NCBI RefSeq assembly: GCF_003144195.1
Contig: NW_020290001.1
Span: 1 to 64,000, forward strand
Direction: 5' to 3'
Source: Ceraceosorus guamensis
Taxonomy: Eukaryota; Basidiomycota; Exobasidiomycetes; Ceraceosorales; Ceraceosoraceae
Length of the DNA: 64,000 bases
Part shown: positions 14,479-39,712 of the stretch, piece by piece
Layout: each line of letters opens with the position of its first letter
Position numbering within the stretch: the first letter of the stretch is position 1
Position numbers and translations under genes: made by a program
Notes under the pieces: generated by a model
What the model was told of the DNA's origin: nothing
The model's database searches: none
Seen by the model: only the letters and a program-made list of their open reading frames with translations

Positions 14479-15649
14479 ATGAAGCACAATGAGCACGAAG
14501 TCCAGGTGGTGGTCGATGGGACGCCCTTAGAAGAGTTCAACGTGGACGAAAAGTTCGATACTGTCACCAATACTTGGACGTACACTGGCGAAATTGCGTA
14601 CACACACGATAAGAACTTTCAGTTCCAGATGCTTTATACTGCTCAAAAGCAAGGCCATGGCGTGAAGTACGACGCGTATGTCGACGGTCAGGCGGCGTGT
14701 GACCTGATCGTTATAGGGAAGCTCGATGAGGTCACCACAGAGTGCATCGAAGGATTTGAGCAGCCTGGCTCCGTGCGACCTTTCCGTTGGACTCGTCTCG
14801 GGCTAAGACAGAGTGAGGATGTGGCACTGCATTCCGTTAGAGTAACACGATTCACACTCAGCTCAATACCGATTGTCTGCCCCTACCCAAACTTAGACGC
14901 CCCAGTCTCTTCAGATTCAGAGCCTCCGTCGGATGTAGGCACGCTGTCAATGCTGCTAAAACCTCGGCGCAATTGCGTCTACACAGGCAACCCCTTCACC
15001 GCGTATTCGGACAAGCCATTCAACCCTGCTGCACGCAGTCCCTCCTCAACAGCCATCAAATTTGCTATTGTGACTTGCGATGACCCTATAGCCTCGCGTT
15101 TCATCACAATCGATAGCCGGCCTGATCGCACACGGCCTCGTGTGGTGATGCGATGGACATACATGTTGAGGGATTTGATTGTGGAGAAGCGCCGACAGGG
15201 CGTGCAAGAATCCGCTGGACGCGAGGGGAAAGCGCCGACCGCCGCGGGAGTAGGTGGCTTAAGCATTGCGAGCCGATCCAGAGTGCTCTCAAGTGCTGAC
15301 ACCCACATTTGACCATGCGCCTGCTTATTGCCGAGCGGCCTAGCAGAAACGCAAGCGGGACATCAATGACGTAAGTGTGCGGTCCAGTATCGACATTCGG
15401 TAGGCTATCTTGCAAATCACTTACACTACCCTCTTCGCCCCGTAGGAAACCGAGCGCCTGCAAGCCAGACTTCTACAACTTAAGCAAGAGCTCGAAGAGC
15501 TCGAGCCTTCGGTGTCCCGCGTCAAGCAAGAGAAGAATACTAGGAGCCTCTCTCGAGCCAGCACCTCGAGCATCCGAAGTGTCCCACCCCCAGAGCGTAC
15601 CGGCGAGCTAATGTCAATCGATCTGACTGGAGGCGACGAAGAAGATTGA
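14479..15649 (+). CDS. DUF7918-like protein, paralogue 1 (tandem copy)
   Basis: Three exons (14479-15282, 15347-15370, 15446-15649) give 343 residues. The N-terminal domain (about 1-110) has VVVDGTPLEEFNV, EIAYTHDKNF and PFRWTRLG, the features shared with the other two copies in this window; a second block is PRVVMRWTYMLRDLIVEKRR. A 24-nt exon encodes a basic KRKRDIND patch (likely nuclear signal). The last exon encodes a coiled coil with LKQE (288-291) and VKQE (302-305), then ends MSIDLTGGDEED. I chose the ATG at 14479 because the paralogues start there; an in-frame ATG at 14341 would add 46 unrelated residues. The first donor (AGA|GTGCTC) is weak and is inferred from the paralogues' gene structure. 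Function unknown; the tail suggests SUMO binding (inference). Confidence 0.8.
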
Positions 15650-16707
15650 AACCGGTCTTTGAAGTCGGGGGACTGCTGGATTGTCGGGATCAACACATGA
15701 AGCACTGGGTCGCAAGACGAAGTAGCCCCAAAAAATTCCCGTGACTAGGAATAGGGAGGAAGCAGAACTTGCGAGCTGCCAGTAACGATACTCTGCCACC
15801 GCAACGCAGAGTGCTCAACGATGTCCGGTAACCTCGAATCAAACCTTGCCTTTTCGCCATGTGTCTCGGCGCCCAAAACTTCCACTAGCTCCGAAGCGGC
15901 CTTCGTCGCGCCAAAAGCGGCTCAGATGTCGCCGACCCGCACAGCAAGTAGGTCCCTTTAGTCAAATCCTAATCCATCACAGTCCTGCCCAGGACATGGG
16001 ACTTCAGCACATCGGTGCAACGCAGCACGTTCCGAGCCATCCACGCGCTTGAATCTTAAGCATCTTCCTTGATCAAAGTGTGCTCTTGGTGATTTCGCTA
16101 CTGTGCACCTGTGTCCTCTCCACCTTCTAAGCTTGATTCTGCTGCTGCGTGGTGAGCTCAAGTAGAGAAAGTCGTTGGATCAAGAATGTGTATGCGCCTT
16201 CAATCGATGGTACTCTTGATTCAAGACCGAAGCTGCATGCTGTTCCATACAAAGAAGCAAAATGTGACCACGTGATCGTTTCGCAGGCGCTTTTTTTGGT
16301 GTAGGCGCGCCTCCCCGCACTCACGACTCATGCAAGCAGCTTAAAGAAATCAGAATCGTGAATTAAGCGCGCGCGCATGAACACGACGCGCCGGGACGTG
16401 GGCGTACTCGTGACTGATAAGCTCAAGACTCGTGCATGTTAATTATACATCATGACCCTCACATCCACACACATACATCCATCCCCACAGAGATCCATCC
16501 ACGCACCGAAATCCATCCATCAGCCAAGTGCATCCATCCGCCCTCTTCTGTTTCCTCATTTGAACAGCTTGTACACAAGATCTGGCACTCGGAATTGCTG
16601 GATGAACCCAGCCCTCCCGGGCCTTGAAAGGCTCTGAGTCAAGGAAGCTCGAGTGAAGGAAACTCTGACTCGCGCACGCAGTGCATACCCCATCCTCCGT
16701 CGGCATC
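15650..16707. other. Spacer between the tandem DUF7918-like genes
   Basis: 1.06 kb. It holds a CATCCA-rich low-complexity stretch (about 16456-16532), GACTC/GAGTC-type words (16320-16335, 16408-16435) and a 47-codon frame at 15821-15961 without recognisable features. No gene is called. Confidence 0.45.
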
Positions 16708-17922
16708 ATGAAGTACGGAGAGCATCAAGCGAGTGTGATGGTGGATGGGAAGGCGCTTGAAGAGTTCAATGTGGAGCATACCTACGACAAGAACACAAAT
16801 ACGCACACGTGCACTGCGGAGATCGCTTACACTCACAACGCGAACTTTATCACACATCATACCTATTCTAAGGAAAGCAAGGATCAGACTGTCACATACT
16901 TCTTGTATGTTGATGGCCAGTGTGCGCACAGTCACATTTGCACCCAGGACGCAGGTCAGAGGGAGGGCTATATTAAGGGGTTTCGTACCGCCAGTCATGG
17001 TTACAAGCCGTTCAGGTGGTCTCGCCTGGCACACCGAGCGGGTGAGCAGTACCGACGAGGGCAGCTGTTTGGTGCATCGCTGAGTGATCGGCTGACTCTT
17101 TACGAGGTTTCTCGTTGTGTCTCAGATTTTGAGGACGAAACCTCGACATCGTCACTTCCTCTTCAAGCAGGGACCATCAAGCTCCATATCGAGCCGCGAA
17201 AGAATCTCAGCGAGCGACCGGCGATAATACCCGCTTCCGACGGCCCACTGGATGCGACTGGCCTGCAACCTTCCAAGGGCATGATCAAACCGGCGCTGGT
17301 CGGAGCCGATGCAGAAGTCGCGCAGAAAACTCCGTTACGCTCCTTCGCGAGCGACTACGACCCATCTCGCCCTGTTGTTGTCATGATCTGGAAATACATG
17401 TTGCGTGATCTTATCGTCGATCGATCACAAGGTAGTCGATCCGCAACATTGGGCGCTCCCTCGAGCTCGTCCGCCTCCAATCACTCGGCAGCAAGCAATG
17501 CTCAGGTGCGTCACACGTCAAGTTCCCGAGCCGTCGTGTAGCTCCGTCGTCTTTCGGTTGACCTCGCCCGTCTCGCATGCTGGCATTGTATCAGTCTCCG
17601 GTCAAGCGCAAACGCGAGCTGGATGAGGTGAGCATGGCAGCAAGATTAGGAAAAGGGAGTTTTCGAACCCTACTCACGTCTCTCTTGAATGCTATCCTTT
17701 CTTCAGGAAGCTGAACAGCTTCAAAGCCGCTGGGCAGCCATCAAGCAAGAGCGTTTGCAGCTGCGCGAGACTACTGCTAATGTGAAGCCAGAGGCCGAAC
17801 ACCGCGTGCGATCCAGAGCAGGTAGCAACGCCAGCGTGCAGAGCGTTCCGCCACCAGTCAGAGAGCGCACTGGCCAAAGCATCTCCATCGATCTTACCGA
17901 GCTTGATGACGATGACGAGTGA
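16708..17922 (+). CDS. DUF7918-like protein, paralogue 2 (tandem copy)
   Basis: Three exons (16708-17505, 17595-17627, 17707-17922) give 348 residues with clean GTGCGT, GTGAGC and AG junctions, all phase 0. It aligns by eye with paralogue 1 along its whole length: VMVDGKALEEFNVEH, EIAYTHNANF, KPFRWSRL, IKPALVGAD, then RPVVVMIWKYMLRDLIVD. The short middle exon encodes SPVKRKRELDE, and the last exon a coiled coil with IKQE (289-292) and VKPE (303-306), then SVPPP and the terminal SISIDLTELDDDDE. The 33-nt middle exon and both intron positions are shared with paralogues 1 and 3. Biochemical function is unknown. A basic patch, two SUMO-acceptor-like sites and a SUMO-interacting-like tail point to a nuclear, SUMO-linked role (inference). 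Confidence 0.85.
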
Positions 17923-18425
17923 GAGCACCCGAAGCATTCAGAGGTCTACTCGGCTTACAGTCAATCAGTGAGCTCTTCTTACGACGCTAGCAGAAGCAGC
18001 TTTCATGCTAACGGCTGCATTCTCGTCCTGCCATCAGACCACTTGCATTTTGAAGTTCGACACGACTCAAGCCTTTGCGTCATGGTCTGAAGCAAATTTC
18101 GCCGTCGTCATCAAGAATCACCTCCCAGCAATTCCTGTAATGTCATCAAACATCGCCCAGTCATCTGTCATCAATCACCAACTCAAGACCCCATTTCGGC
18201 CCAGCCACAATTCACATTTTCGCTTCCCATCATCAGTCACCTTTTGTCAACCAGAGTCGTGCCAGTGCGCCGGCAACTTGATTCGCTTTCGAGTCCAGAT
18301 TCTCATTTTCGTAACGTGATCTGCCGGGTACAGCTCGTGACACTTAGAAGGGGACATTCGGGACGCCGAGAGTACCGTACTTGAGGCGGCGATTCGGCGA
18401 GAGCAGGTGACGCGCGGACATGTAC
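17923..18425. other. Convergent spacer between DUF7918-like 2 and FTR1
   Basis: 500 bp between two 3' ends. CATCA-rich on the plus strand (18100-18240). No reading frame or RNA gene seen; it should hold both polyadenylation regions. Confidence 0.45.
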
Positions 18426-19909
18426 TCAGGCAGATACGGATGCGTTGGCGTTGCTGCTTGGTTTGACGCCTCTGACTTTCCGAACCACCTTTGCCAGCCT
18501 TCCCTCCTTCCAAGCGGCATAGCCAAGGTAAGCAGTGATGGCGAGCCAATAGAACACATAAGCCAGTACCGAGCCGATCGTTGCAGTGTTGTTCCAGCCG
18601 ACCAGACTGTTGAGGATACCCCACCCACCAGAAGAAGTCGTGTCTTCAGGGTTGCAGCAGTCCAGATGCCAGACGTAGTCCTTGTAGTAGTATGAACCTG
18701 GACCGCTACCTGATTCGGCTGCTGCGTCACCTACCAGCTTGACGTAGCGGTAGAATTGGAGGTAGTACACTGCTCGGGATGCCATACCTGCTGCGATGAT
18801 GAGGAGGGCGACGGTGGAGAGGATCAAGAAGCTGTGTGCGGGGAAAAGGGTTAGCGTGGTGCGATAGAGCAATAAAGATTGATCCGTGGGCTGACAGACT
18901 CACAACCGGACTTGTTTGCCTACGGAACCAGCGCGGAATACGATGGCGCCTACCAGAAGACCTGCTGCGATACCTACAACAGCAGGCAGCGGGATGCTAG
19001 TGGCCGGCAGACCAAGCGAAACGCCTCCTATGAAGACGACACCTTCAAGGCCCTCTCTTAATGTGGTGACTAGAGGGATGAAGAAGAGAGCCAGGGCGCC
19101 CTTCTTGCCTTGGCGAAGTGGTTGAAGCGCGGACTTGAGCTTGGTAGCAAAGCCCTTGCTGCGATGCTGAGAGTCGTCGACGGATTGTCCGGATACTTGA
19201 GGCAAGGTGGAAATCTCTTGAGGCTGCTCCAAATTCTTTTCGGCCTCACTAGCGGGGGATTTGCCCTCCGATGCCTCCTCGCTGCCAGCTCTTGGGCTCA
19301 AACCGCTACCTTCACCGTGCTTGTCCGCTCTCACATCGGCAAACGCGTTTCTCAGCTTGCGTCTCCACTTTGCTCTGGAACGGTCTGCCCTCAGGATGGC
19401 TAGACTCATGGGAGTGATGAGAAGTACGGCGATGAGGTTGAATATGCCTTCCCACAGCTCTTCGGCTTTGCCATACAGATCGTTGGCTTGAGTGTAGAAG
19501 ACGGCAAGGAAGGCGGCTCCGATGCAGAAAGCGATGAACAGACCGGAGAGGGCGCCGAGGATGACCTGCAGCAGGGAAGGAAATGCGGTGAATGCAACCC
19601 GAGCATCAAGTCAGCTAGTCGGTCGCAGGAGAGGTGTGGGCGGTGAGCACGACTCACGATCCATCTGAGCTTCGTCACGAGCGATTTGCTCTCGTCTTGC
19701 GACCTGCCCGTAGCATTTGCCGCATCGCTCTCTTCTCCATCCGAGCTCTTGTCATTCGCCTTGACCTTGGACTGTACGCGACCAGTGTTGACCAGCGTCT
19801 CCAACAGACCGCTCAGTATGCCGATGACCAGCGCCGCTTCGAGCGATTCTCTAAAAGCGATGAAGAAGATGGCAGGTGCGAAGACCTTGTTGCCGGTTGG
19901 GGACGACAT
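18426..19909 (-). CDS. FTR1: High-affinity iron permease Ftr1
   Basis: Plasma-membrane permease that takes up Fe(III) made by the ferroxidase Fet3. Three exons (19658-19909, 18904-19565, 18426-18831) give 439 residues, close to the 380-420 typical of fungal Ftr1. Both REXXE iron-binding motifs are present: RESLE at 20-24 in the first membrane helix and REGLE at about 254-258. Other membrane segments include FIAFCIGAAFLAVFYT, FNLIAVLLITPMSLAIL, GIAAGLLVGAIVF and FLILSTVALLIIAAGM. A hydrophilic insert of about 90 residues rich in Ser, Glu and Gln separates the two halves. The C-terminal region has the DYVWHLDCCNPE and GWNNTATIGSVLAYVFYWLA segments typical of the family. It sits next to an OPT gene and 5.4 kb from FET3, as expected for a co-regulated iron uptake locus. 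Confidence 0.96.
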
Positions 19910-21195
19910 GTTGCCTCTGCAGACGACGGAAAGTTGGAGTGTTGTTGGCCTAACACACGAGCGGAGATGTCGATGGATGACGAGCGAGTTAAATGGAGGA
20001 AGTTTGTCGCGACTCTTTGAACATTAAGATGCTGCTGGCAAGAGAGTGCAGCGCGCCGGGACTTGAAGAAGCGCCGATGAAGTTAGAAGCGTCCAGGGCA
20101 CAGGTCCGCTGCAAGAGCGCAAATTTCGCTCGTCAGATTTGGGCGGGTTTGCGAGCAACAAATCCAAAGACGCGCGAGGCTCGGGCTTCTTGATTGGCGT
20201 GCGGCCAACGATCGAGCGCAGTCATGCAAGTAAGTGGTGATGAGCCGAAAAGGTGGGAGAAAAAGTCGAGTCGCGTGATTATCAGCGAAATCAAGAGATC
20301 AGATGGTCGGTCGGTCGGTCGAGGCTGAATGCTGTTCAGTCTCGGCGCGCGGTATAGAATGCAGAGGCCTAATCGTGCAGATCAGCAGTAGTAGTCGTGA
20401 GCAGTCGTGAGCAGTCGTGAGCAGCCCATCTCGTCTCCTGCTTTTGTGGCTGATACGAGGATTTGTCAGTGACCAGTGGAGATTGGCGGCGGATCGAAGC
20501 GCTTCTTTTCCCTCCTTCGCCGTTGTGAAGGTCTGGACCGCGGTAGGCAAAGGAGTGAGAGAAAGCTGCGCTCTGCTTAGCGCAGAACACGACCAGATGA
20601 GAATCCGCTGCTGCATGCACACCGATGTACACGGTGCGGCATGCCTTTTGGCCCGTTCAGGCAAGCCGCCGGGCAAGATCGCTGCTGCTGCTGCGCTGCT
20701 GGTCCCTGCCTGCTATAGATGCGTTGCACGTAGCCCCCGACGGGTTCCTGCGGCTCAAAGATGCATGCTAAAGCTTATGTGCAGCGGGACCGTCGGAGTT
20801 GGTTGCCCCCATCAGATAAAGATCCAGCGGGTTGCGGCGGACTCCAGAGCGGCAAACTTTCAATTGTAAACTTGAATAAGAGGTGGCATGGCGCGCACTC
20901 GACCTCTGTAGAAAGCGTTTCACGCACGCACGCGCACAGACATCACAGGTCGGACTGATATGTATCTGCACTGAAAACATGAGTGTGCCCTGCACAGGGC
21001 GAGCAGGGGCACGCATTCTTGGTGACCCAAGCGTTTGCGGGTGCGAAACAAGGGCTACACAAAGGTTATCCATCTATCTTGTTTGCCTAAAGCGGTTGAA
21101 GGTATCGTACTCTTTGCTGGATCGAAGGCGATTTGCAAACAAGTCACGAGGCGCGTGTTCATGATCTCATGGCAAGTTGTCGAGGACGCGAAATG
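19910..21195. promoter_or_regulatory. FTR1 upstream region
   Basis: 1.3 kb between the FTR1 start and the OPT stop. It contains a TGATAA on the minus strand at 20279-20284 and an ATCAGATAA at 20811-20819. It also has (GGTC)4 at about 20305-20321 and a threefold 10-bp repeat GCAGTCGTGA at about 20391-20420. No gene. Confidence 0.5.
20811..20819 (+). promoter_or_regulatory. Candidate iron-GATA-factor site ATCAGATAA
   Basis: The nine bases match exactly the ATC(A/T)GATAA core recognised by fungal iron-responsive GATA repressors (Sre1/Fep1 class; Urbs1 in smuts binds GATAA-type sites). It lies about 0.9 kb upstream of FTR1. A nine-base match by chance in 64 kb is possible, so its function is inferred from the neighbouring genes. 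Confidence 0.45.
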
Positions 21196-23966
21196 TCATC
21201 CCGCGCAAATGCCGGAACAGCCACCTCGGCAGCCCCAGCAGGACCAAGGTTGAGCACCGACCTGTCTAAGCAGAAGCGTAACAATGCTAGCTGCTCCTTC
21301 GCCCAGCACAAAGCCGGCGCTCAGGACGAGCAAGAAGACGGGTGGAAGATCGAAAGGAGAAGGCGCTTTGCCACCCCTTTTCTGCGCTTGTCGACGTTGA
21401 TACCAAATGGATAGCAGACCACCCAGAAGTCGCGCTAGGGTGTAATTTGGCTGTCGGATCAAGTGTGCAACATGGTCAGTCATTGCATCAACGGGCAGAG
21501 CTTGCGCCACTCACTGTGTTCAGACCCAGACCGACCGCGAAGGCTATCCCGTTGGGAAGCCAAGCGACGATGGTCTCCCAGCGAGGCCGAAGCGGGGAGC
21601 GTGGGCGCCCCTGCAGTGCTCGTCTATGTTCGCGCGCGTTTTGCCTTGCACTCACGACCGTCTTGAGGGCACCAGAGGTGGCAAAGACAGCAGCAGTCGC
21701 AATCATGAATTCCTTGCTTCGCGCAGGTAGTTGTTCACCATCATTGATGAGCCTTGCAAAGTTGAGCCACAACCTAGCAGCTGGAGCTGGCATTTCGGGT
21801 CCTGGAATCGCGTACGAGGATTCGTACGCTTTGTATCCTATCGAAGACACGACTAGACCCACTGATCCGCCCACCAATTGTCCGACGAACTGCCCTCGAG
21901 GACTCGCACGAACCAAATGCCCAGTCTTGAAGTCTTGCATCAGCTCGCCAGCATGCATTGCACTACCTTCGGCCAGCGCTCCGCCGACTAGGTTGGCTAG
22001 CACATGGTTTGGCGCGACGAAGGCAAACACCAGCTGGCTGAGCTGCAGATTTAGCGTGGCGTCAGCCGTACTTGGATGCGTGGGAGTTCAACAGTCGAGC
22101 GGACAAGCCAAAATTTGATGCTCACCTTGCCTAGCGCGCCGACGGGGTTCAAATCTACAGTGCCCAGGGAGCGCACTGCCAAAACAGCAAGCACGGCAGC
22201 CACCAGAATTCCCAAGGCCACATGCAGGAAATCCACTCCTTGGCTACCAAAAAGGTAGATCAAGATGGTTACTGCAGAGCCGGCGGACAGCACGAGGCCC
22301 ACTAGTAGCCAAGAAGCTGGGATAAGCCTTGCTGCCGGCTCGTCCTCGTCATCAGATTTACGGCTCTGCGTCAAGTGCGCCGAGCTGCCGATGCCGTTGA
22401 CGCCTCGAGCCCCGCGAGCCTGAGCCCGCACTCTCTGAGGTTCGCTGCCGCGCCAAGTAAAGAGCAAGACTAAGATCCCCACGAAGCTTTCGGAGGTCAT
22501 GATCGCCAATGCTATCCAAAGCAGCCATGCTGGCAGAGGAAGAAAGTCGTGTCAACGCCGGACCTGCGACGTGCACCAGAGCTGGGTACGTACCTCGTGA
22601 TCCGGTGTCAGCGTCCAATGGCTCCCCTTTTGCCCATCCATAGTGATGCGCCAAAGGACTGAGGATGCCCCAGCCCACGATAGCTCCGGCGAACATGGCC
22701 GCTGACGTTGGGAAACCCATGATGACTCCCTGACCGACATAAGAGAGGGATGGTGTGAACCACCAACCCCAGACTTTTGCTAGATCGTGCGCTGGCGATA
22801 GAATGTCAAAGGCAGGTACAGCATACACCACGGGAATAAAATAGGCTAGCAGCTGCAGTGACAGTACGAGAGCGCAGCTTGGCTCAATTCGAGAGCTGCG
22901 GCATTTGCTCGACTCGGCGCACTCACAGTTACCCCAGCAGACAACAAGAATGAGTACCACATTGGTCTCCAGCTCTCCTCGATTTCTTGAGAAGTTTGAG
23001 GCTCTTCGGCCTGAGTAGAAGGAGACGCATCTACTCCCGGCACAGGTGCAGGGTTCGGCGTATCGCTGGTGCCCAAGTCCTCGGGCTCCTCGTGAGAATT
23101 GACCGGCGCGTGCACCTGCCAGAGCAGCGGCCTGTGCTCGCCCGATTCGTCGGCCCGCGCGCTGGGGTCCCCACCTTCTTGCGACGCAACTTCCTCATCT
23201 TGGCGTAGTTTGACATTGTGAATGACACCGATGAGCTGTGCAGTTGCTGTTCCTGAAGGGAATCTGAGCTTTTCCTTCAGAACAAAGGTAACGCGCAGAG
23301 GGGCTGCAAAGAAGACGCCGAAGCTGGGAGAGGGAGGAGGAAGGATGGAGTGGAGATCGACTGAGTGAATGCGTTTGCTGGACGTGCCGAGCTTACTCAC
23401 AATGCCAAGCTGCCGCTCCAAAGCATGAGCTCTGCCAAGGAGAACTTGAATGGCGAAGCTCCGCCGTCTCGCGCAGGGTCCAGCAGGGTGAACGCGGGCA
23501 CAATGCCGATGAGGCCAGCAGCGAGAGGCATAGCTCCCGCGCTCACAGCTGTAGCCTGAAGCACAGCGTTCTCCTGCGGTGAGAAGGGACCGCTATGCAG
23601 TGGGGAGCCTGACGAGCCTATTCGAGAAGCGAGCCAAGTGGGAGGTGCAGGGAATAGTTTGACGAGACCGTAGCCCACCAACGCGGCTTGAAGAGAGGCC
23701 ATGGTGATCCATGATGACTGCAGGCCAAAGTAGAGGTTGGTGAATGCTAGCAAGGACCCTACTGCGATGCCACCCAGTAAAGCCCTCGGCGTTACATCGT
23801 CCGGCACCATCCTGCTGCCATTGTGTTGACCGCCTCTTGCGTTCTGCCCTGCTTGCTGGCGATGTGCTCTGGCTTCATCTCGTGCGGCCCTCCGAGCAGC
23901 GGCAGCCTGCACCCTTCGCGTATTGCTTGGAGACATCCTGAAGTCTCCCAGACGTCTGTCAACCAC
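21196..23966 (-). CDS. OPT-family oligopeptide/metal-chelate transporter
   Basis: Seven exons (23401-23966, 22927-23323, 22594-22852, 22126-22529, 21656-22042, 21515-21610, 21196-21450) join in frame to 787 residues (777 if the second Met at 23936 is used), normal for fungal OPT proteins. Family marks: LAFTNLYFGLQSSWITMASL, FFAAPLRV then KLRFPSGTATAQLIGV, GWWFTPSLSYVGQGVIMGFP, WGILSPLAHHYGWAKG, AMHAGELMQDFKTGHLV, WLPNGIAFAVGLGLNTPNY and GEGAASIV. The DFKTGHL and sGTATA-type signatures suggest the branch that includes YSL-like transporters rather than the classical tetrapeptide transporters, but substrate cannot be read from sequence. Its position between FTR1 and FET3 makes an iron- or copper-related substrate, or glutathione, attractive (inference). 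Confidence 0.88.
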
Positions 23967-25324
23967 CAGTCGTGGTCAATTGAAGGGAAGCGACACGGAT
24001 CGAGTGTTGTTTCCCACCTCGATGGCCATTCTGATTCTACGTACGACCCCTGATGTGAATCAAGAATGTTCACGCTGCATGGGTCAAGATGAGTCGCGCG
24101 CGTCGTGAGTCACGAGTGGAGCGCCGATTTCCCGAGCTCGTCACAGCACGTGACTTCCCAGGCGACACGTGACCGATCCCGACCACTGAACCATCAGCGG
24201 GCTGTCTGTTGGATCCTGCTCCGCGACGCCAAAAAAAATTCCAGACGCGTCGGATCAGATTACGCGCGCGGATAAGCCACAACGCAGCAGCGGCGAGCGT
24301 GTGTGTCGCTCTGCTCTTGTCCATGATTTGATTGCTTCCCTCCTCCCGGCGCTAAATCATCGTCCTAAATCGAGACTGTTCACAAGCCGGACCGACTCGC
24401 TCGATATGCTCTCACATCACCTGATGAGGCTTCATGCATGGACTTGCTCGAATTTCTAGACTTGCGAGATTTCGCTTGCAGCAGCAGCAACGAAGCCGAG
24501 GTTCCTGCATGGGCCCGCCGGTCCGCGACAAGTGGAAACCGGAGGCCATGCGGGCGGCTTCTTACTTGAGTTGGCTTCCGAATTTGTGTGCTGCTCTCGT
24601 TCGCTGCCGCCGCAATCGTAACTCTAGGCCAAGTCGTTACAGTACAGTGACGGCAGGGAGGCGCCCTACGGCAGTATGGAGCAGTGAGAGTACAACAGAA
24701 CTCCTGACTGCTATCGAAGGATATCCTTTGGCATCTCCGCTGCGGGTCATCGTTGCACCATGCTTGCTCTTCTCACGCGACAAGGAGCCCCAAATTTGTA
24801 GGCATTCGAATAGGTCCACCACCATTCTTGATTCATGATTCACACTGCGTGTCGGTGCGCGACTTTGTCTTTTGGTTGCCTCACCGCGGTCCCTCGAATG
24901 GCTTTCTGTCCGCCTAATTTGCGATCCAAACCGCGCTGATCAATCATTGATCAGATCAAACCTCACCGCAGCAACTTTAGCCTTATTGAGCAGAAGCTAG
25001 ACTCCCCATTCACTCCTCTCTCGAGTCGATGCCTGCCGCCTGCAAGCGTGACACTTGGAGAGCCTTCACGCAGCAGAAGCGTTCCTGACGCTTCATCCGG
25101 TGGCTTGCAGCACACTCAAGCTTCGCCCTTCTATATCAGCCGGTCTGGACATCAACCCTCTCCGCTGTAACGACGAGCGTAAATCGCTCAGAGCCAGCGC
25201 TACAAGCACGCAGGAAGATCTAAATTGCACAGACACGCTTGTTCATGCTTCCCACGTACCCGCCTCTTTTCCCATCCTCCCTTCACCACCCCTTCTTGTC
25301 TTGCCAAGCACAGCAACATCAGCA
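23967..25324. promoter_or_regulatory. Shared upstream region of OPT and FET3
   Basis: 1.36 kb between divergent OPT and FET3 genes. A GGATAA on the plus strand at 24270-24275 fits the relaxed GATAA class bound by iron GATA factors; no full ATC(A/T)GATAA was found by eye. A GTGAGTCACGAGTGG segment at about 24106-24120 belongs to the dispersed spacer words. The last 300 bp before the FET3 ATG are pyrimidine-rich on the plus strand, as in a leader. Confidence 0.45.
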
Positions 25325-27626
25325 ATGCGAGCGAGTTCCTCTGCAATCGTTGCGGGCGCAGCTGCGCTCGTCGCAGCTTCCAGCTCCACACTCGCAGCGA
25401 ACGTCGACCACGTGTGGAACGTCGGATGGGTCAACGATGTGAATCCAGATGGCCTGCAGCCGAGAAGGGCCATCGGCGTCAACGGCACTTGGCCTCCTCC
25501 TATCATCGTGAGTGCGAAGCTGTCATTTGCTAGGCGGGTCATCTGACCCTGGAGCGTTGGCACCTGACAGAATGTCAATTCGACGGATGTGCTGCGTGTC
25601 ACTGTCAACAACGCTTTTGACGATGGGACCGGAACGGCCTTACACGTGAGTGCAAGCTGTGCCACCTCGACGTAGGCCAAAGTGCTCACGCGAAGCGTCT
25701 CGTTTTGACGGGCTAGAGTCACGGAATGTTCTTCAACAATGTGAGTGCTCGCATGCAAGCTCAGGCCAGTCAAATGCTCATTGATCTGTCCGACCTCTGC
25801 TCCCCTCTCAGACGGGCTATTGGGATGGCGCTGTAGGCATTACGCAGTGTCCCATTCCTGCAGGCCAAAGCATCACGTACGAGCCGCTCAATTCACCAAG
25901 CGGTAGTGCGGGCCGCAAAGAGCAGTGGGGAACCTTTTGGACGTGAGTCGAGAAGCGCACCGGAGACGCACTCAAGCTCTTTGCACCCCCGCTGACAACC
26001 GTCTTGTGATGCAGTCACGGCCATTACGCCGGGCAGTACGTTGACGGTTTGCGCACACCAGCCATCATTCACAACGCCAACGAGGTGCACGCATACGATG
26101 ACGACTACACAATTATCCTAGCGGACTGGTATCACGACGAGCACGACTACCTGCTCAAAAATGAGTTCATCAACGTCAAGAACCCCACCGGTGCCGAGCC
26201 AGTCCCGAAAGCCGCGCAAGTGTACTTTGCCCACACGAGCAACGCGACCAGCGCAAGCTACTTGGCTGGATTCAACGAGAACGCCACGTTGCCTTTCGTG
26301 CCTGGCAAGACGTATCGCTTGCGACTGATCAACATGTCAGCTCTGTCCATGTATCACTTTTGGATCGAGGGCCACGATATGCGCATCATCGAAGCCGATG
26401 GCGTCGACACAGAGGAGTCGCCTGTGGACGTCATCACCATCAGCGTCGCACAGCGATACTCGATTCTGATCACAGCTCGATCTGACACCTCAAAGAATTG
26501 GCCGATCCATGCCAATCTCGATCCAGACATGTACGATGTTGTGCCAGACGACCTACAGCTCAGTGAGTCAGCGCGCGTTGCTTGCACACTTGCCAATCTC
26601 GCGATAATCGCAATGCTGACGCACGCTGGTGTGCGACACCACTGCAGATGTCACGGCGACACTGTCGTATGCATCGGGGCAAGAGCTGGGCTCTGAACGG
26701 CCCACCTTGGACGAGTACAAGTACTTCGACGATACCGTCCTGGTTCCCTCCGCCGTCGAAGGCATGTCTAAAGCGGATGCATCGCACGACCTGCACGTCA
26801 GCTTCAACACGTACAGCGACGGCAAGCCGTACGCGAGCTTCAACAACATCAGCTTCATCAACCCCAACACTCCCTCTCTGTCCACATTGACATCGATGGG
26901 TTCGTTGTCCGCAGATGCGGCAGTCTACGGACCCAACACGGGAGCGACGATCTTCAATCATATGGACATGGTGCAGGTGACCATTTACAATTGGGATGCA
27001 GGTACACATCCTTTCCATCTCCACGGACACAACTTCCAAGTCGTCCACAAGGCGATCGATGTTACCAGCGATGACCCCGCCCTCAACCCACCTTTCAATG
27101 AGACTCAGGTAAACCCAATGCGCCGCGATACCATCACTATTCACAGCACGGGAAGTGCTACAATTCGGTTCCGTGCGGACAACCCTGGGGCCTGGTTCTT
27201 GCACTGTAAGTTGGACGTAGCGGGTTTCCTCGGCCGATTTGAAGCTGCTATGGCTGACGCCAACGAACCTCGCGATGCCTTTCCGTAGGCCACATCGAGT
27301 GGCACATGAATCAAGGTCTATCCACACTACTTCTGGAAGCGCCTCTTCAGGCGCAACAGACGCTCTCCACCCCGGCGGTGTTCGGACAGCAATGTCAATC
27401 GCAAGGCATCTCGCCCACCGGCAATGCGGCGGGTTTCAACTCCACTACGGACTTTGAAGGACTGCAAGCCGAACCTACTTACCTCGTCACCGGCTGGACT
27501 CCGAAAGCTGTGGGAGCGCTCACTGGTTGCATCATCACTGCGCTGTGTGGAATTGCCGCCGTTGTTGCGTATGGATACACTGAGCAGGAGAGCTCGGATG
27601 AGCAGCAAGAAGAGGAGGACAAGTAG
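25325..27626 (+). CDS. FET3: Multicopper ferroxidase Fet3
   Basis: Cell-surface ferroxidase that oxidises Fe(II) to Fe(III) for import by Ftr1. Seven exons (25325-25507, 25571-25645, 25717-25740, 25812-25942, 26015-26562, 26648-27205, 27289-27626) give 618 residues, near the 620-640 of Fet3 proteins. A signal peptide (about 1-25) is followed by three cupredoxin domains. Copper ligands are visible: LHSHGMF, WTHGH followed by YAGQYVDGLR, HPFHLHGHNF, and HCHIEWHMNQGL containing the type-1 Cys; the Cys-His block is rebuilt across the last intron. A C-terminal membrane helix (TGCIITALCGIAAVVAYGY) and an acidic cytosolic tail separate it from secreted laccases. Exon 3 is only 24 nt. Clustered with FTR1. 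Confidence 0.96.
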
Positions 27627-32007: not shown

Positions 32008-32428
32008 GAAGATCAGAGCGAGCTCCAGGCCGCGTGCTTGCACATCCCGTCAGCCGCTCTTCGCACGCGTCAGCAGAGCACACGATCTTGCGCTTGGCAC
32101 ATTTGTGCTTCCTCTCACGCATCGATGATGTGGGGTGTGTACTACTAGCGACGTGTGGTACTAGACGTTTTGGAACGGAGCGGGAGCAGAGGGTGATTGA
32201 GGTTTTCGCGAGCGAAGCGCGAAGCGGATAACATGCATGGGTGGATCTAGACTTGGGAAGGCGCAAAAGGGGATGGTGTGTAAGGCTTGGACAGAGGGGC
32301 TGGTGACATTGAACAAGGAGAAGCTGGATCGCGACAGCAAAAGGCAGAAAGGCCAAGGCAAAGGTCGCGTGAGCTTTGCTGCAACAGTCGCTCGCGATTG
32401 CACTCAAAGCGAAGGGATGCGCGTGCGT
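32008..32428. other. Convergent spacer between MRE11 and importin alpha
   Basis: 421 bp between two 3' ends. Purine-rich on the plus strand in its second half (about 32280-32370). No gene seen; it should carry both polyadenylation signals. Confidence 0.45.
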
Positions 32429-34485
32429 TTACTGCATTGAGGTATCGCCGTTGGGTGCAGGGGCCGCAAAGGAGAAGCCGCCGGTAGGAGCAGCAGCGAC
32501 ATTGGACTGGAAGGCAAAGCTTCCTGTCTCATCCACTTGTGCAGGTGCCAAGCCTCCATCCTCATTCTCGTCCTCATCTGGGAAGTACTTGTCCATGATA
32601 AAGACTGCAAGTCATGTAGAGAGCCGCGTGAGCTAGCAGTCATGAAGGACACGCGCCGTAGAAGATACTCACAGCACTTTTTGTAAATCTCCAAATTCTC
32701 GTGGTGTTGAAGATTGTGAATGGTCACCATGCCACCGCACTCTTCAATGTAGAGTGCATACTGGTTGACCGCGCCGGCTCCGTTCGCAGTCTTGTCCTGC
32801 TCTCCGACCTTCAAAATGTTCTCCAAGCCATCCAAGGCAACTTGAATGATCTTGTTGTCGAGACTCTTCAGCAGGTCGCAAAGCGGCCTGATGCACCCTT
32901 GGGAGACCAAGTACCGAATCTGGGCAGGCTCTTGCAAGCCACCAGAGGTAGCGTTCGAGATCGCCCAGCACGCCTCCTTCTTGGTCTTGAAGTCAGCATG
33001 GACAAGGATCTGGATGAGAGGAGGAATAATGTTCGCATCGATGACGGCCTGGATCTGTTGGCTCGAGCCAGCGGTGATGTTGGAGATGGTCCAGCAAGCT
33101 TCCTTCTTGATGCCGTCCTTTGCACTGCTCAAGAGAGACAGCAGAGGAGGCAAAGCGCCGCTAGCAATGATGACCTGTGTCTGCATGTCGTCACCGGTGA
33201 CGATGTTGCCAACGGATCGTAGGGCGGGTGTCTGCACAGCGGTGGAAGAGTGGGTCAACAGATCCACTAGTCTGCGACACAGACCGGACTCGATGACAGC
33301 CTGAATCTTCTCATTCGCGCCGTCCGAGAGGTATGAGATGGCCCAGCATGCATCTATCAAGACTTCGTCGTCTTGAGAGTAGATGAGCTTCGTGAGGATG
33401 GTCAGGGCAGGAGAGACCTGTAGGTGTCCGAAAAGGTGAGAGGTGAAGTGAATGCCTTGCGGACACACGAGGCCTCGCACCATCTACTCACGAGTTGCCA
33501 GTCGGGCTGAGGGCTCTTGCCACGGCAGAAGTTGCTCAAGGTCCAGGTCGCATTGCGAAGCATGCTCATCTTGTGGTTCTCTTGCAGCAAGCTGAGCAAG
33601 GGAGCCATGGCACCCTGCTGCAAGACGTAGTCTCTGCAGCGAGGCGAGTCGCCTGCGATGTTACCAAGGGCCCAGACAGCTTGCTCGCGCACGTCCAAGA
33701 CGGTCGACGCCAACAACTCGATAAAGACGGGAACAGCTCCGTAGTCGATGACGACTTGCGTGTGTTGAGAGGTGCCCGATGCGATGTTTGTCAATGCCCA
33801 CGCCGCTTCGAACTGTGGTAGTGAGGTGAGTTGCTTAGCATGGCGCTCTGGCAATACGAGCATGATGAGAGCAGACTGACCGAAACCAGACTGTGAGGTG
33901 AGCGGAGGAACTCGACGAAGCGCGGCACGACGCCGCATGCGATCACACGTTCGATGGGCGGGTTCTTCTCTTTTGACAGGAGCTTTCTGAACTTCGTCGT
34001 CGAGTCCAGCTGCCTGTCCAGGTCTTCGGACATGACCCCCGCAATCATCTCAGGCAGTTGCTCCTCCAGCTGACGAAGTTGGAAAAGACGAGGGGAAAAC
34101 AATTTGGCGTTAGAGACTCGTGAATCGAAGCCTTTGCGCTTGCTAACACTAGCCAGCGCTCGGGTTAGGGCGACCTTGATATCACAATCGTCTGGCACAA
34201 CTTCTCCAAGCGCTTGCAAGCGCATAAATCCGTGCAGTTGGTACGGCGCAGCCCACTCACCTGTGCATCCGTAGCAGCGCCGACCACATCTTCCTCATCG
34301 GTCTCTCCTCCAGAAAGTGCAGAAGCGAGATTGAGATTTCGGCGCTTAGCCATGGACTCGTCCCTCTTTTGCTTGCGAATCTCGACTTGAGCCTCCTCGC
34401 GACGGCGACGGAGCTCATCGGTCTTGAATTGCGACTTGTTTTTGAACGCCTCTTGGCGGCGAGTCATATCTCTGAGCCCTGACAT
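32429..34485 (-). CDS. SRP1: Importin subunit alpha (karyopherin alpha)
   Basis: Adaptor that binds classical nuclear localisation signals and importin beta. Five exons (34261-34485, 33881-34069, 33492-33812, 32673-33417, 32429-32604) give 551 residues, normal for the family. The N-terminal importin-beta-binding region is rich in RRRREE/RKQKR, followed by an acidic GGETDEED linker. Armadillo repeats carry the invariant [75 protein letters not shown] and [14 protein letters not shown] Trp-Asn ladders. The C-terminus (ENLEIYKKC, then YFPDEDEN) matches the exportin-binding tail. Intron 2 uses a GTCAGT donor, weaker than the rest. Tail-to-tail with MRE11, head-to-head with RIB1. Confidence 0.95.
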
Positions 34486-34798: not shown

Positions 34799-34833
34799 GG
34801 GCGCGCGCGCGCGCGTGTGCGTGTGTGTGTGTG
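34799..34833. repeat. Alternating (GC)n(GT)n dinucleotide run
   Basis: About 35 bp of almost pure alternating purine-pyrimidine sequence, first GC steps and then GT steps. Such runs favour left-handed DNA and are slippage-prone. Lies about 320 bp upstream of the importin alpha start. Confidence 0.85.
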
Positions 34834-34871
34834 TCTTTTGCGTCGCGGCGACAAACATGTCAGCTATAAAG

Positions 34872-34872
34872 A

Positions 34873-34910
<38 letters not shown>
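34872..34910. repeat. (CTG/CAG)n microsatellite
   Basis: About 12-13 uninterrupted CTG units directly after a GCTATAAAGAG segment. Non-coding as far as I can tell; the Cep57-like gene at 59.2 kb carries a similar tract in coding sequence. Confidence 0.85.
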
Positions 34911-35714
34911 ATGCTCGCTGATGCATGTTGCGTGCGCTTCTCGCACACCCACGCTCATCCGCGGGTGCGCGTACACCGCGACGAGTCTTGGAATATGGTG
35001 ATGGTGCGGCGTAAAAGATGGTCACGTGCCTGACGAGGCCTCACATTGAAGATGCTGATACAAAATTCTGATTCGTGCTTTGTTTGCGCATGCCGTCCTT
35101 AGGATCGTAGAGGTGCTCACAACCCGAAATCTCTTCAAGGGTATCGCATCACAACTCACATCACACGGAGGAGTCTGTCATCAGGGCTGTCTGAATCCAT
35201 GAGCGTCGTGAACCAGGCAACGGCGCAAAGCCGCGCCCGCGCCACCTAAACCACGTGGCCTTTCGCGTCTGACTGACGGTGGTGACGCTTTCACCGAACC
35301 GGCTGATCGGCCCATGCATGCGCGCGAGAGCCCCGCTCCTGCGCTGATAGCGTTTGTTTGGCCTTGTTGTAGCTCGAACCCGCTTAGGAAGCGCGTGCTA
35401 AACGAACTCGGCTTTTAGGAGCCGGCACGATGCACAGTGGACGATTACGGTGCAGAAGATGCGATCACCGCGCGAACTATACATCGCCAAGTCCGACATG
35501 AGCGCGGTAGCGGGGTCCATCGTCATCTCCGTTCTGGACCATGCTGCGTGTCCGCGCATCCTGTCCTTACCCACCACTCTCCAGGTCTGTACTACATTTC
35601 ATACAAGTCTCCGCGGGCGATAGGGCGAAGCTGAGGTCCCATTCAGCGCCGCGCTGTCCTGGAAATCGTCTGTGCTATATTTGAGCGCTGAGTATAAAGG
35701 ATAGGATCATCGCC

Positions 35715-38180
35715 ATGACTTTCTACACTGCGCAACCTCAGCACCTTTCCAGCTCGAGGCCAAGCTCAAACCCCGCCTCCTTCCACTCCTCTTCCCCTGC
35801 TACTTCAAGCGATCGCGCTCTGCTCGATATGCTCTCCACGCTTCCCGCCCCCGGTCAAGCTCCCGTGTCTCGCCATCAGCCCGCCTTTGGATCGCCATCT
35901 TTTCAAAATGCTCCCTTGGCGAATGACAAACGTCCACTGGCCACTCTGGCAGCTCTGAGACGTCCGCCAATAGATCCTATCATTCTCGCTGCTTCTCTGA
36001 GCAGCGGACCTCACGTCACCAGGCACCATTTCCACCATTCTTATGGAGCGCCTAGACAGAGTAAACAGATGTCAGTCTCGCAGCGCAAAGAAAGATTGCA
36101 AAATGCGCCATCCTCCGAATTGGCATCAACATCCGACTCCTCGACAGGTCGAAGCAAGCAACGAACAGCTTCGGTCAGCGGGAGCTATGCGAACTGCGAC
36201 CTGAACGACGAAGCGCTCGAGAATTTGGAAGCGGATGCATTGCGAGCTGAGAGCGAGATCGCAGAGCTGGTCAGTAGCACCTCGCTCGTGCCGGCTGTGA
36301 CGGATGAAGAGCAGGCCTACTACGCATCGAGGCAAGCACCTCGAAGCCAACGATTACGATTAGAAGCGGATGCCTCTGCAAAAGCTGCAAAGCAGAGCGC
36401 CACTGCCAATTCACCCTCATTGCAGCCGGCGCGTGGCGATCGGCCTCCAGCTTTAGCAGAGGCTCAGTCCCTTCATGCCCAGAGCTCAAAAGCTCTCACT
36501 GATGATCCGGATGTTCGGCCATCGCCAGCTGCTCCAATGGCGAGCACTTCCCAGCCAAGCAAAGCAGCGGCGCAGCTATCAGAGGCTCTGCACTCTCGCC
36601 AACAGCTCATCTCGTCCGCTCCGTCCACACCTCTCCATTTGGGCAGCCTGCCGTCCGCAGGTCCGCAGCTAGGCATGCCGGTCGGCCAGTCCACCCCGAT
36701 GTCGCTGGCGGGCTTGTCTTCCATCGTCAGACCCCCTCCTCTGCACGTGCGATGCTATGCTCGCACCCGGATCCCAACCCCGCACGGCGAAGCTTTTTGC
36801 CATCTCTACCGCAACAATCACGATGGCAAGGAGCACCTCGCGCTCGTGATTGATCCCGCTCAGAATTCGGAAGAGACGATGGCTCACATTGCTGATGGGC
36901 CGACGGGAGAAGATGCGGCTGCTTCATCTCGACACCTTCGCAGCGCTACGCTCGACGAGATGTGGAGCTCCGAAGAGACGGAGATGGAAAGGATTGTGAG
37001 AGGAGCCTATGTTGGTAGACTGGGTCCTTCTTTTCAGCAGGCTAGTGTGGGTCGGGACGCTAGGCTAGGAAGACGTGCGGACGCGGTAGCTGCCCGCACC
37101 GAAGATGAGACGGCTCCACTCGTGCGCATACACAGCGAATGCTACACGGGCGAGACGATTGGCTCTCAACGTTGCGATTGCGGAGAGCAACTCGACGAAG
37201 CGATTCGACTCATCCATGCTACAGGTACGGCAAATAGACCAGCTCGAGGGGTGATCGTGTATCTGCGCCAAGAAGGCAGAGGTATAGGTCTCCTTGACAA
37301 GCTTATGGCGTACAATTTGCAAGATATGGGCCACGATACTGTATCCGCCAATGTGCTGTTAGGGCACTTGCCCGATGCGAGGAAGTACGACATTGCAGCT
37401 GCCATTCTGCGCGACCTGGGTGTTGAAGATTGCCGGCTGCTGACGAATAATCCAGATAAGATGGAAGCTCTGGAAAGAGAGGGTGTTCGGGTGTCTGAAA
37501 GGGTGGCCATGGTACCTCGTGCTTGGAGACAAGAGATCGGAGCCAAGCATCGGCGTAGAAGAGCAGCTAGGCGCAGAGAACATTCGACGAGAAGCAAGAC
37601 CTTGAAGAAGAAGGCTAGTGCTGTGCCGATGGATTCGAGCGTGCTTTCACAAGCACCGATGGAGAGCAGCAAGGGCTCTCCGCGTGTGAATGCGGACTTT
37701 TCTCATTCGGATTCGAGCAGGGAGAGCGAGTGGGATGAAGAAAGCGACGATGGACTGGAGGAAGAGTACGTGGACCACGTGCTCAGGAGGAGCGGAGCTA
37801 CGATGTTGGGAGCGAGCATCACTCGAGGTCCAGAGTTGGAAAGGTACTTGCGGACAAAGGTGGAGAGGATGGGCCATCTGCTCGACTTGCCATCCAATGG
37901 CGAAGGTGCTTCGACATCCGCTTTTTCCGGTATCCGACACCCCCTGGCTGAAAGCGCTGAACCTCGAGAGGACGAGAACGCAGAGGCGGGAGATGCAGAG
38001 GTCAGAACGGATCCAGAGAGCTTGTTGGATGAAAAGGACCTGCAGCATGCTTTGGCTGCTGCGAGCACACAAGCGGCAGAGCAGACCGCGAGAGCGGATC
38101 AGCGCGGGCACGAACAATCGCACGCAGCACAAGAAGACGATGCGGAGGAGGGAGAGACTGTACTTGTCAAGCGTAACTAG
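35715..38180 (+). CDS. RIB1: GTP cyclohydrolase II with long N- and C-terminal extensions
   Basis: First enzyme of riboflavin synthesis: opens GTP to 2,5-diamino-6-ribosylamino-4-pyrimidinone 5'-phosphate, formate and pyrophosphate. Single exon, 821 residues. The catalytic domain (about 345-605) is typical: [21 protein letters not shown] at its start, the zinc site C476-x10-C-x-C in the stretch [45 protein letters not shown] and [13 protein letters not shown]. Family members are usually 200-400 residues, so about 340 N-terminal Ser/Ala/Gln-rich and 215 C-terminal basic-then-acidic residues are extra. An insert of about 90 residues also lies between the GEAFCHLY strand and the zinc site. Only one Met precedes the low-complexity head, so the start is plausible but a downstream start cannot be excluded. 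Confidence 0.93.
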
Positions 38181-38571
38181 ATCGGAATAGCATTCATTGT
38201 GCCGCTTATCTTGTGCGCAGCTGGGCGCTTTGTCTACGGGAGAGATGCTAGAGTAGAGAAGAGCGAGAAACTTAGGTAGAGCGGTGCGTAGATGGCTCCA
38301 AGCGCGCGGATGCGCGCTTCTTGGCTGGCGCCGACTCGCTCGTCAGGTCCGGGTGGACCTAGCACATACGAATCACTGCTGGCATGCTCAAACGCTCGTG
38401 TATGGCTTTCAAAGTGGACATTGGGATGACCGGCGCGAGTATCTTGGAGTTGTACGACATGATTGCCGCTGATTCAGCGTACTCTTGGTGGATGTGTGAT
38501 TCGTCGTAGCGTGGAGACTGAATTGCGGTTTGCTGAGGGATCATCACTTTGCGAGAGCTTGGACGATCTTC
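38181..38571. other. Convergent spacer between RIB1 and DUF7918-like 3
   Basis: 390 bp between two 3' ends; no gene or repeat seen. Confidence 0.45.
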
Positions 38572-39712
38572 TTAGTCGTCGTCCTTGGTGAGATCGACGT
38601 ACTCCTTTCTAGGACGCTTAGTGGGGTCGCTGGTGGACGCTCCAGCACTTTCGCGCTTGACATGTTCGCGCGATCCTCCCAAGCCCTGGCTTTCTTGTTT
38701 GAGAGCGGCAAGCTGTGCTTGCAGGTTTTGCTTTTCCTGTGGGAGCAGAATATCGAGGTCAGTGTCGCGAAAAGCGTGCAAGCAAATCTTTGCACCCGTC
38801 GCGAAAACCGCGCACATCTTTGCACCTACTCACCTCTTCGATCTGCTCCTGGCGAGACTTTTGCTGCGACACCAACACGCGTGCGCTCAGATGCTGTCCG
38901 AGATCACGCTGCGCACTCATCGTGGTACTCACCTGCGTACGAGGCTCAGTCTCGCTTCCGTTTTCAGTGCGCTCATCGCCGGTGTCAGCAGTCAAGCCGT
39001 CCTGGCCTCGTCTTTCTATGATGAGGTCTTCGAGCAGGTATTGCCACTTCATCATGACTTTTGGGCGCGAAGAGTCCGGCTTGATGTCCACAAAATTCTG
39101 TTGAGCCTTGTGTGGAACGATTTGGTCAGCAGACACGAGCGCTGGCTTGATGGATTTCTCTGCAGGTTTCATGCCGCTGGCGGAAAGGGGTTCTGCATTG
39201 ACGCGAGGGCGCCGTTTGCTAGAGGTGTAGCCTGTGATCGGGCTCAGGATGAGAGCGATGGTGCTAGCATCTGGCGGTAGCTCTTTTGCTTGGCTGGTTT
39301 CGTCGCCGTCTGAGAAGCGAGCCGTAGTGCTGGGTGTCAGTAAAGGGTGGGGGTCCGAGGAATCACCGCCTTACGTACCCTCTCTGCGCGCCATGCGAGC
39401 CCAGCGAAAGAGGCGTACACCTCGAGTAGTGATGAAGCCCTCGTGCTTCAAAGGTTTGTCCTTGGGCATCAGCGCAGGGTCGCGAATCATCGACGCGGCG
39501 AATTGACCATCGACCATTGCAGTGGCCGTGTAGCAGCGATCCGTGTGCTTGTAGTAGTAGTGGATGGCAAAGTTGGCACCGTGCGTGTAAGGTATTTCGC
39601 AAGTAGCGACGAACGTGTTGGTGGCGGGTTGGAAGTTGATCCTCACGTTGGATTCCTTGACAGGTTTGCCATCCACGACGATGACAGCGTAGTGATCCGA
39701 GACTCGCATCAT
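38572..39712 (-). CDS. DUF7918-like protein, paralogue 3 (dispersed copy)
   Basis: Four exons (39379-39712, 38933-39309, 38834-38863, 38572-38736) give 301 residues. The N-terminal domain has VIVVDGKPVKESNVRI, EIPYTHGANFAIHYY and RLFRWARMARRE; then IKPALVSAD and RPKVMMKWQYLLEDLIIERR. A 30-nt exon (QKSRQEQIEE) precedes the final coiled-coil exon, at the same place as the 24- and 33-nt exons of paralogues 1 and 2. One extra intron splits the front part. LKQE (259-262) and VKRE (273-276) occupy the same offsets in the last exon as in the other copies, and the protein ends KEYVDLTKDDD. The Met at 39712 is followed by a second Met at 39709; either could start. Function unknown. Confidence 0.85.

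What the first reader, a model, noticed from the sequence alone, without database searches (positions are those of the whole stretch)
14479..39712. Three DUF7918-like paralogues share two SUMO-acceptor sites at fixed offsets and a C-terminal SUMO-interacting-motif-like tail
In the last exon of all three genes, counting from its first residue, psi-K-x-E sites begin at exactly positions 12 (LKQE, IKQE, LKQE) and 26 (VKQE, VKPE, VKRE), although the residues between differ. Each protein then ends within 10 residues after IDLT, IDLT or VDLT followed by acidic residues, the classic acidic-flanked SUMO-interacting motif. Two of the three also have a KRKR patch just before the coiled coil. Conservation of acceptor sites plus a reader motif in an otherwise fast-changing tail suggests a SUMO-assembled nuclear complex or SUMO-dependent oligomer. 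I know no description of this for the family.
Basis: partly seen in the sequence, partly recalled or inferred. Interest (0 to 1): 0.8.

Follow-up and report, generated by a model that had tools for sequence, protein, structure and literature searches.

The report
Coiled-coil DUF7918 paralogues with SUMO-binding-like tails
Three old gene copies in a eukaryotic, probably fungal, genome end in a short coiled coil and an acidic tail resembling a SUMO-docking peptide; the two supposed SUMO attachment sites sit on the coiled-coil repeat, so at least one is probably just coil.

Summary
All three genes share four exons with the same intron phases. In each last exon psi-K-x-E starts at residues 12 and 26, and each protein ends in IDLT, IDLT or VDLT plus acidic residues. 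Synonymous sites are near or at saturation, so these residues were kept by selection. The main argument needs revision. The 14-residue offset is two heptads: columns -2, 5, 12, 19 and 26 are hydrophobic in 15 of 15 cells, against 2 of 60 outside a and d. Site 1 lies in a confidently predicted helix, and the best PDB matches of the last-exon profile are coiled coils carrying LAALKQE. Site 1 is therefore most simply coil. Site 2 (VKxE) is the only invariant feature of columns 20-30 and remains a plausible acceptor. The tail meets four of five positions of published SIM type b; all three miss the first. Best reading: a coiled-coil oligomer with weak C-terminal SUMO-docking tails. Oligomerisation, nuclear location, SUMO binding and SUMO modification are inferred.

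The parts
14479..15649 (+). Gene G1, four exons (14479-14812, 14897-15282, 15344-15370, 15446-15649), 316 aa
   Evidence: DUF7918 19.9 bits, below the 27 cut-off
16708..17923 (+). Gene G2, four exons (16708-17041, 17126-17505, 17595-17627, 17707-17923), 320 aa; DUF7918
   Evidence: DUF7918 31.4 bits, above cut-off
38572..39712 (-). Gene G3, four exons (39712-39379, 39309-38933, 38863-38834, 38736-38572), 301 aa
   Evidence: 33-35% identical to G1 and G2, no direct Pfam DUF7918 match
15344..15370 (+). G1 micro-exon, 27 nt, phase 0-0: QKRKRDIND, basic patch plus heptad d residue at column -2
17595..17627 (+). G2 micro-exon, 33 nt, phase 0-0: SPVKRKRELDE
38834..38863 (-). G3 micro-exon, 30 nt, phase 0-0: QKSRQEQIEE, no KRKR
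15446..15502 (+). G1 coiled coil within last exon, columns 1-19 (d residues at -2, 5, 12, 19)
17707..17763 (+). G2 coiled coil within last exon, columns 1-19
   Evidence: register only; no model of this copy was made
38680..38736 (-). G3 coiled coil within last exon, columns 1-19
   Evidence: register only; no model of this copy was made
15479..15490 (+). G1 site 1 LKQE (columns 12-15 = heptad d-e-f-g)
17740..17751 (+). G2 site 1 IKQE
38692..38703 (-). G3 site 1 LKQE
15521..15532 (+). G1 site 2 VKQE (columns 26-29)
17782..17793 (+). G2 site 2 VKPE
38650..38661 (-). G3 site 2 VKRE
15617..15646 (+). G1 SIM-like end IDLTGGDEED
17887..17919 (+). G2 SIM-like end IDLTELDDDDE
38575..38598 (-). G3 SIM-like end VDLTKDDD

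Best explanation
These are functional, ancient paralogues made of an N-terminal DUF7918 domain (beta-rich in a poor model), a basic nuclear-import-like patch (G1, G2), a short leucine-zipper-type coiled coil, and a tail of low predicted order ending in a degenerate type-b SUMO-interacting motif. The coil pairs the proteins, possibly with one another, so that two or more weak [IV]DLT-acidic tails act together and dock the DUF7918 domains on SUMO-modified nuclear partners by avidity. Site 1 (LKQE) is a coiled-coil heptad segment. Site 2 (VKxE), just beyond the secure part of the coil, may be a SUMO acceptor that tunes docking or self-association. Shown: open gene structure, selection, heptad register. 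Predicted: helix and low-order tail. Inferred: oligomerisation, nuclear location, SUMO binding, any SUMO modification.
For: Matching gene structure and phases. Saturated or nearly saturated synonymous sites with kept coil, V26-K27-x-E29 and DLT-acidic residues. One heptad register: d columns -2, 5, 12, 19, 26 hydrophobic in 15 of 15 cells, a+d 20 of 27, elsewhere 2 of 60; for columns -2 to 19, 12 of 20000 column shuffles reach the observed best register. AlphaFold2 on the G1 last exon: block pLDDT 93 and 89 for residues 1-10 and 11-20, then 55-65. Profile search of the PDB with the last exon: the best two of 19 listed sequences (E 0.00022 and 0.0062) carry LAALKQE; by their names 17 of the 19 are designed coiled coils (my reading of the names) and 2 are ribosomal protein L29/L35. 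Among 11 columns 20-30 only 26, 27 and 29 are invariant. An end of [VIL]DLT plus acidic residues occurs at these three genes only, among 1374 segments of the window. Precedent: RNF4 RING dimerisation raises its avidity for SUMO chains through SIMs of both monomers, and a PIAS1 peptide with a VIDLT core binds mono-SUMO2 at 16 uM (PMC3901395, passages).
Against: All three tails break the first position of published SIM type b (S, S, Y). Nothing was measured. AlphaFold2 saw three sequences and one chain, so it says helix, not oligomer; its helix runs to residue 37, at low confidence after about 20. The heptad register was chosen after seeing the sequences. The DUF7918 model is poor (mean pLDDT 37.8), so the domain's role is unknown. 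G3 lacks KRKR. The last 29 residues of G2 found no SIM peptide in the PDB (3 weak listings, best E 0.44). No homologue outside the window was examined.
Confidence: 0.5

Rival explanations
1. Both psi-K-x-E sites are only coiled-coil segments. The zipper runs through column 26 and K and E at e and g are ordinary helix-flanking charges; there is no SUMO acceptor. The IDLT end may still be a SIM or another docking peptide.
For: The offset of 14 is exactly two heptads and V26 keeps the d register in 3 of 3. The predicted helix of G1 continues to residue 37. K13 and E15 are not more conserved than other exposed coil columns (P 0.128).
Against: G1 has P21 and G3 has G20-G21 between the sites. The a columns 16 and 23 are not hydrophobic in 4 of 6 cells (residues). 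Block pLDDT falls to 60 after residue 20. In columns 20-30 only V, K and E of the motif are invariant while x varies Q, P, R, as the SUMO consensus would have it.
Confidence: 0.35
2. One reading: two conserved SUMO acceptors plus a SIM, making a SUMO-SIM assembled nuclear complex.
For: Both consensus sites and the tail are kept in 3 of 3 despite saturated synonymous divergence. G1 site 1 has three acidic residues in the next ten. Coil position does not forbid modification: in yeast meiosis SMC coiled coils are strongly modified, mostly at solvent-exposed sites (PMC7924959, passages).
Against: Site 1 is explained by the heptad. No SUMO data. In the ten residues after site 2 there are 0, 1 and 1 acidic residues and no SP, and after site 1 of G2 and G3 one each. 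Only 14.26% of mapped yeast meiotic sites fit the consensus, so the consensus is a weak guide in either direction.
Confidence: 0.12
3. The acidic [IV]DLT end binds something other than SUMO, for example an intramolecular basic patch or another groove-binding adaptor.
For: First SIM position not met in 3 of 3; basic patches lie nearby (KRKR in G1 and G2, KRPRK in G3). Inference otherwise.
Against: DLT plus acidic residues fits type b at four of five positions; I identified no other named motif, but searched no motif library.
Confidence: 0.25
4. The basic patch plus zipper is a degenerate bZIP DNA-binding region.
For: G2 contains N-x7-K-x9-L ending on the d residue L5, the recalled bZIP spacing, followed by d residues every seven.
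Against: The spacing is absent from G1 and G3 (1 of 3); the G2 stretch has a proline inside; no bZIP family among the Pfam matches up to E=1.
Confidence: 0.03

Closest known systems
Pfam PF25534 DUF7918
   Same: G2 passes the curated cut-off (31.4 vs 27 bits); G1 and G3 are its homologues.
   Different: G1 is below cut-off and G3 unmatched. The best match in G2 covers residues 7-144 (profile 3-152 of 228), so the coil and tail lie outside the matched region. No paper in the held library contains the word DUF7918.
RNF4 and PIAS1 (type-b SIM proteins)
   Same: DLT core with acidic flank; in RNF4, dimerisation adds the SIMs of both monomers for avidity (PMC3901395, passages).
   Different: No RING family among the Pfam matches; the residue before I/V is not one of PILVM; SUMO binding untested.
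Sp100 of PML nuclear bodies
   Same: A dimerisation region, a SUMO consensus lysine, a SIM and a nuclear localisation sequence in one protein (PMC7882683, passages).
   Different: No sequence relation was tested or claimed; order of parts differs (here the SIM-like motif is at the extreme end).
Designed coiled coils with LAALKQE heptads (PDB 9tls, 9tlt)
   Same: G3's LAALKQE at site 1 is the heptad printed in both matches.
   Different: Artificial sequences by their names; resemblance is by heptad rules, not descent.

Membership tests
DUF7918 (PF25534) | Whole-protein score at or above the curated cut-off of 27 bits | tested here: met
   Met by G2 only, 1 of 3 (31.4); G1 19.9, G3 no match
SUMO acceptor consensus, site 1 | psi-K-x-E present and conserved beyond its structural context | tested here: not met
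   Sequence present in 3 of 3 but conservation is no higher than other exposed coil columns and x is invariant Q; heptad d-e-f-g
SUMO acceptor consensus, site 2 | psi-K-x-E present and conserved beyond its structural context | tested here: inconclusive
   Only 26, 27 and 29 invariant of 11 columns, but V26 is also in heptad phase
SUMO acceptor consensus | SUMO conjugated to the lysine | not testable with these tools
   needs an assay
SIM type b | (PILVM)-(ILVM)-D-L-T | tested here: not met
   SIDLT, SIDLT, YVDLT: first position fails in 3 of 3, the other four match in 3 of 3
SIM type b | Flanking acidic residues | tested here: met
   4 (G1), 6 (G2) and 3 (G3) acidic residues after DLT
SIM type b | Binds SUMO | not testable with these tools
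   needs an assay
Leucine-zipper-type coiled coil | Hydrophobic residues at heptad d (and mostly a) | tested here: met
   d 12 of 12 and a+d 16 of 21 in columns -2 to 19; helix with block pLDDT 93 and 89 in G1
Leucine-zipper-type coiled coil | Oligomer in solution | not testable with these tools
   needs an assay
bZIP transcription factor | N-x7-R/K-x9-L joining basic region and zipper (recalled definition) | tested here: inconclusive
   Spacing met in G2 only, 1 of 3
bZIP transcription factor | Match to a bZIP family model | tested here: not met
   none among the Pfam matches up to E=1 for 3 proteins

The most novel reading that the evidence does not exclude
DUF7918 proteins are a fungal family of coiled-coil, multivalent SUMO readers whose paralogues hetero-oligomerise, are themselves modified at VKxE, and can lose the basic patch and first heptad by skipping a phase 0-0 micro-exon, giving a splice-controlled switch of nuclear SUMO docking.
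Probability: 0.12. Interest if true: 0.65.

Novelty: new member of a known kind. Interest (0 to 1): 0.36.

Why it matters
No paper in the held library contains the word DUF7918 (zero papers). A conserved coil plus a SUMO-docking-like end would give this family a concrete, cheap-to-test hypothesis. It also shows how a coiled-coil repeat can imitate a pair of spaced SUMO consensus sites.

Tried and rejected
Relatives outside the window: profile and recalled-probe scans of viral contigs and genome contigs gave no relative. These collections are viral and prokaryotic, so this says nothing about fungi. The two full-length recalled probes do match DUF7918 (2 of 2, best E 1.1e-26).

bZIP was considered: G2 meets the recalled spacing, G1 and G3 do not; kept as a minor rival. 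Recent duplication as the cause of the shared motifs was rejected: synonymous differences are saturated over the whole gene in all three pairs. Intron 1 of G1 and of G2 is 84 nt and open in frame; coding read-through was rejected because the two intron translations look unrelated by eye and the spliced G2 protein scores higher for DUF7918. Fold search was not run because the domain model is poor (mean pLDDT 37.8). Weak Pfam matches of the three proteins to other families, many of them coiled-coil families, were all below their cut-offs and taken as coil-like or chance. PDB search with the G2 protein (3 listings, best E 0.89) and with its last 29 residues (3 listings, best E 0.44) found nothing significant. 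Paper searches with fungal SUMO or DUF terms gave nothing usable in their listings. Passages of PMC8986097 (Yen1 SIMs) were seen and not needed.

Full report
What is there. The window holds three divergent paralogues, two in tandem on the + strand and one about 21 kb away on the - strand. I rebuilt the gene models: four exons each, first exon 334 nt in all three as counted from the ATG chosen, introns in phases 1, 0, 0. tblastn of the three proteins against the window gave no match better than E 1 outside the three loci. G2 is a DUF7918 protein by Pfam's cut-off; G1 scores below it and G3 has no match up to E=1. The three are 33-39% identical to each other.

The observation. As described: psi-K-x-E at residues 12 and 26 of the last exon in 3 of 3, and an [IV]DLT-acidic end in 3 of 3. 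G3 has one further strict match outside the tail, at residue 88. Over the whole gene synonymous differences are saturated in all three pairs (pS 0.79-0.80) while nonsynonymous are 0.43-0.48. In the last exon alone pS is 0.72-0.84, saturated in two pairs and dS 2.55 in G1-G3. These are old, constrained genes and the motifs were kept by selection.

Why the fixed offset is less telling than it seemed. The distance between the sites is 14, two heptads. With d at columns -2, 5, 12, 19 and 26, d is hydrophobic in 15 of 15 cells, a+d in 20 of 27, and the remaining positions in 2 of 60. Restricted to columns -2 to 19, d is 12 of 12, and 12 of 20000 column shuffles reach the best register. So L/I12 is a coil-core residue and LKQE is heptad d-e-f-g. 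A profile of the last exon matched sequences carrying LAALKQE best; 17 of the 19 listed bear names of designed coiled coils, as I read them, and 2 are ribosomal protein L29/L35. AlphaFold2 on the G1 last exon gave helix with block pLDDT 93 and 89 over the first 20 residues. Among 13 exposed coil columns five are invariant (1, 6, 13, 14, 15), so keeping both 13 and 15 is unremarkable (P 0.128). Against this, a shuffle that keeps the a and d residues but treats the three sequences as independent puts a psi-K-x-E at one shared coil column in only 3 in 100000 trials; I discount it because the sequences share ancestry. All these tests rest on three related sequences and a register chosen after the fact, and are descriptions rather than strict probabilities.

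Site 2. In columns 20-30 only 26, 27 and 29 are invariant and x varies (Q, P, R); the chance of that spacing among 11 columns is 0.048 before asking that the letters be V, K, E. G1 has a proline and G3 two glycines between the sites, and model confidence drops there, which argues that the coil ends near column 19-20. But V26 is in d phase in all three and the low-confidence helix continues to 37 in G1. The ten residues after site 2 hold 0, 1 and 1 acidic residues and no SP, so none of the extended SUMO motifs that I recall is evident; G1 site 1 is followed by three acidic residues in ten. The question stays open.

The tail. The published SIM type b is (PILVM)-(ILVM)-D-L-T (PMC3395311, passages). 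The tails are SIDLT, SIDLT and YVDLT: four of five positions, with the first missed each time, followed by acidic residues. Of 1374 segments of at least 30 aa in the window only these three genes end in [VIL]DLT plus acidic residues. I call it SIM-like. Weak SIMs can work by avidity when a protein dimerises, as described for RNF4, and PIAS1's VIDLT core is a strong example (PMC3901395, passages). This is the basis of the proposed mechanism and is inference.

Micro-exon. KRKR (G1, G2) and the first heptad d residue (all three) lie in a 27, 33 or 30 nt exon flanked by phase-0 introns, so skipping it would keep the frame and remove them. There is no transcript evidence. In G1 the acceptor reads tagcag, so two neighbouring splice sites are possible. 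In G2 the patch and coil together fit the recalled bZIP spacing N-x7-K-x9-L; G1 and G3 do not, and Pfam reports no bZIP family, so I rate a bZIP reading as unlikely.

What could not be done. Homologues outside this genome were sought in eight scans with no relative; the collections are viral and prokaryotic. The DUF7918 domain model was too poor for fold comparison. Literature: no paper in the held library contains 'DUF7918'. A search for SUMO with basidiomycota and domain-of-unknown-function terms listed two papers whose titles and abstract openings look unrelated; neither was read.

Verdict. Real, constrained features; the 'two SUMO acceptors at fixed offset' argument is weakened because the offset is the heptad repeat. 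What remains is a coiled-coil protein with a SIM-like end and one possible acceptor, an ordinary kind of architecture in an uncharacterised family, cheap to test.

Noticed in passing
window 18900-27285: Frames matching FTR1 iron permease (PF03239), OPT transporter (PF03169) and multicopper oxidase (PF00394, PF07731) lie between the DUF7918 paralogues, resembling a reductive iron-uptake cluster (the cluster reading is recalled knowledge).
   Followed up: partly
window 35685-38180: An open frame of 831 codons matching GTP cyclohydrolase II (PF00925, two stretches, the best at residues 468-607), with long further sequence on both sides of the best stretch.
   Followed up: no
window 14813-14896 and 17042-17125: Intron 1 of G1 and of G2 are both exactly 84 nt and open in frame, so retention would insert 28 residues; that of G3 is 69 nt with an in-frame stop.
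   Followed up: partly
window 15344-15370, 17595-17627, 38834-38863: Symmetric phase 0-0 micro-exon that carries the basic patch (G1, G2) and the first heptad d residue; skipping would keep the frame.
   Followed up: no
window 32404-33480 (-): Armadillo-repeat protein (Pfam Arm and Arm_3), perhaps importin alpha (name recalled).
   Followed up: no
G2, residues upstream of column 5 (window 17497-17721, spliced): N-x7-K-x9-L spacing of the recalled bZIP signature ends on the coil d residue L5 in G2 but not in G1 or G3.
   Followed up: partly
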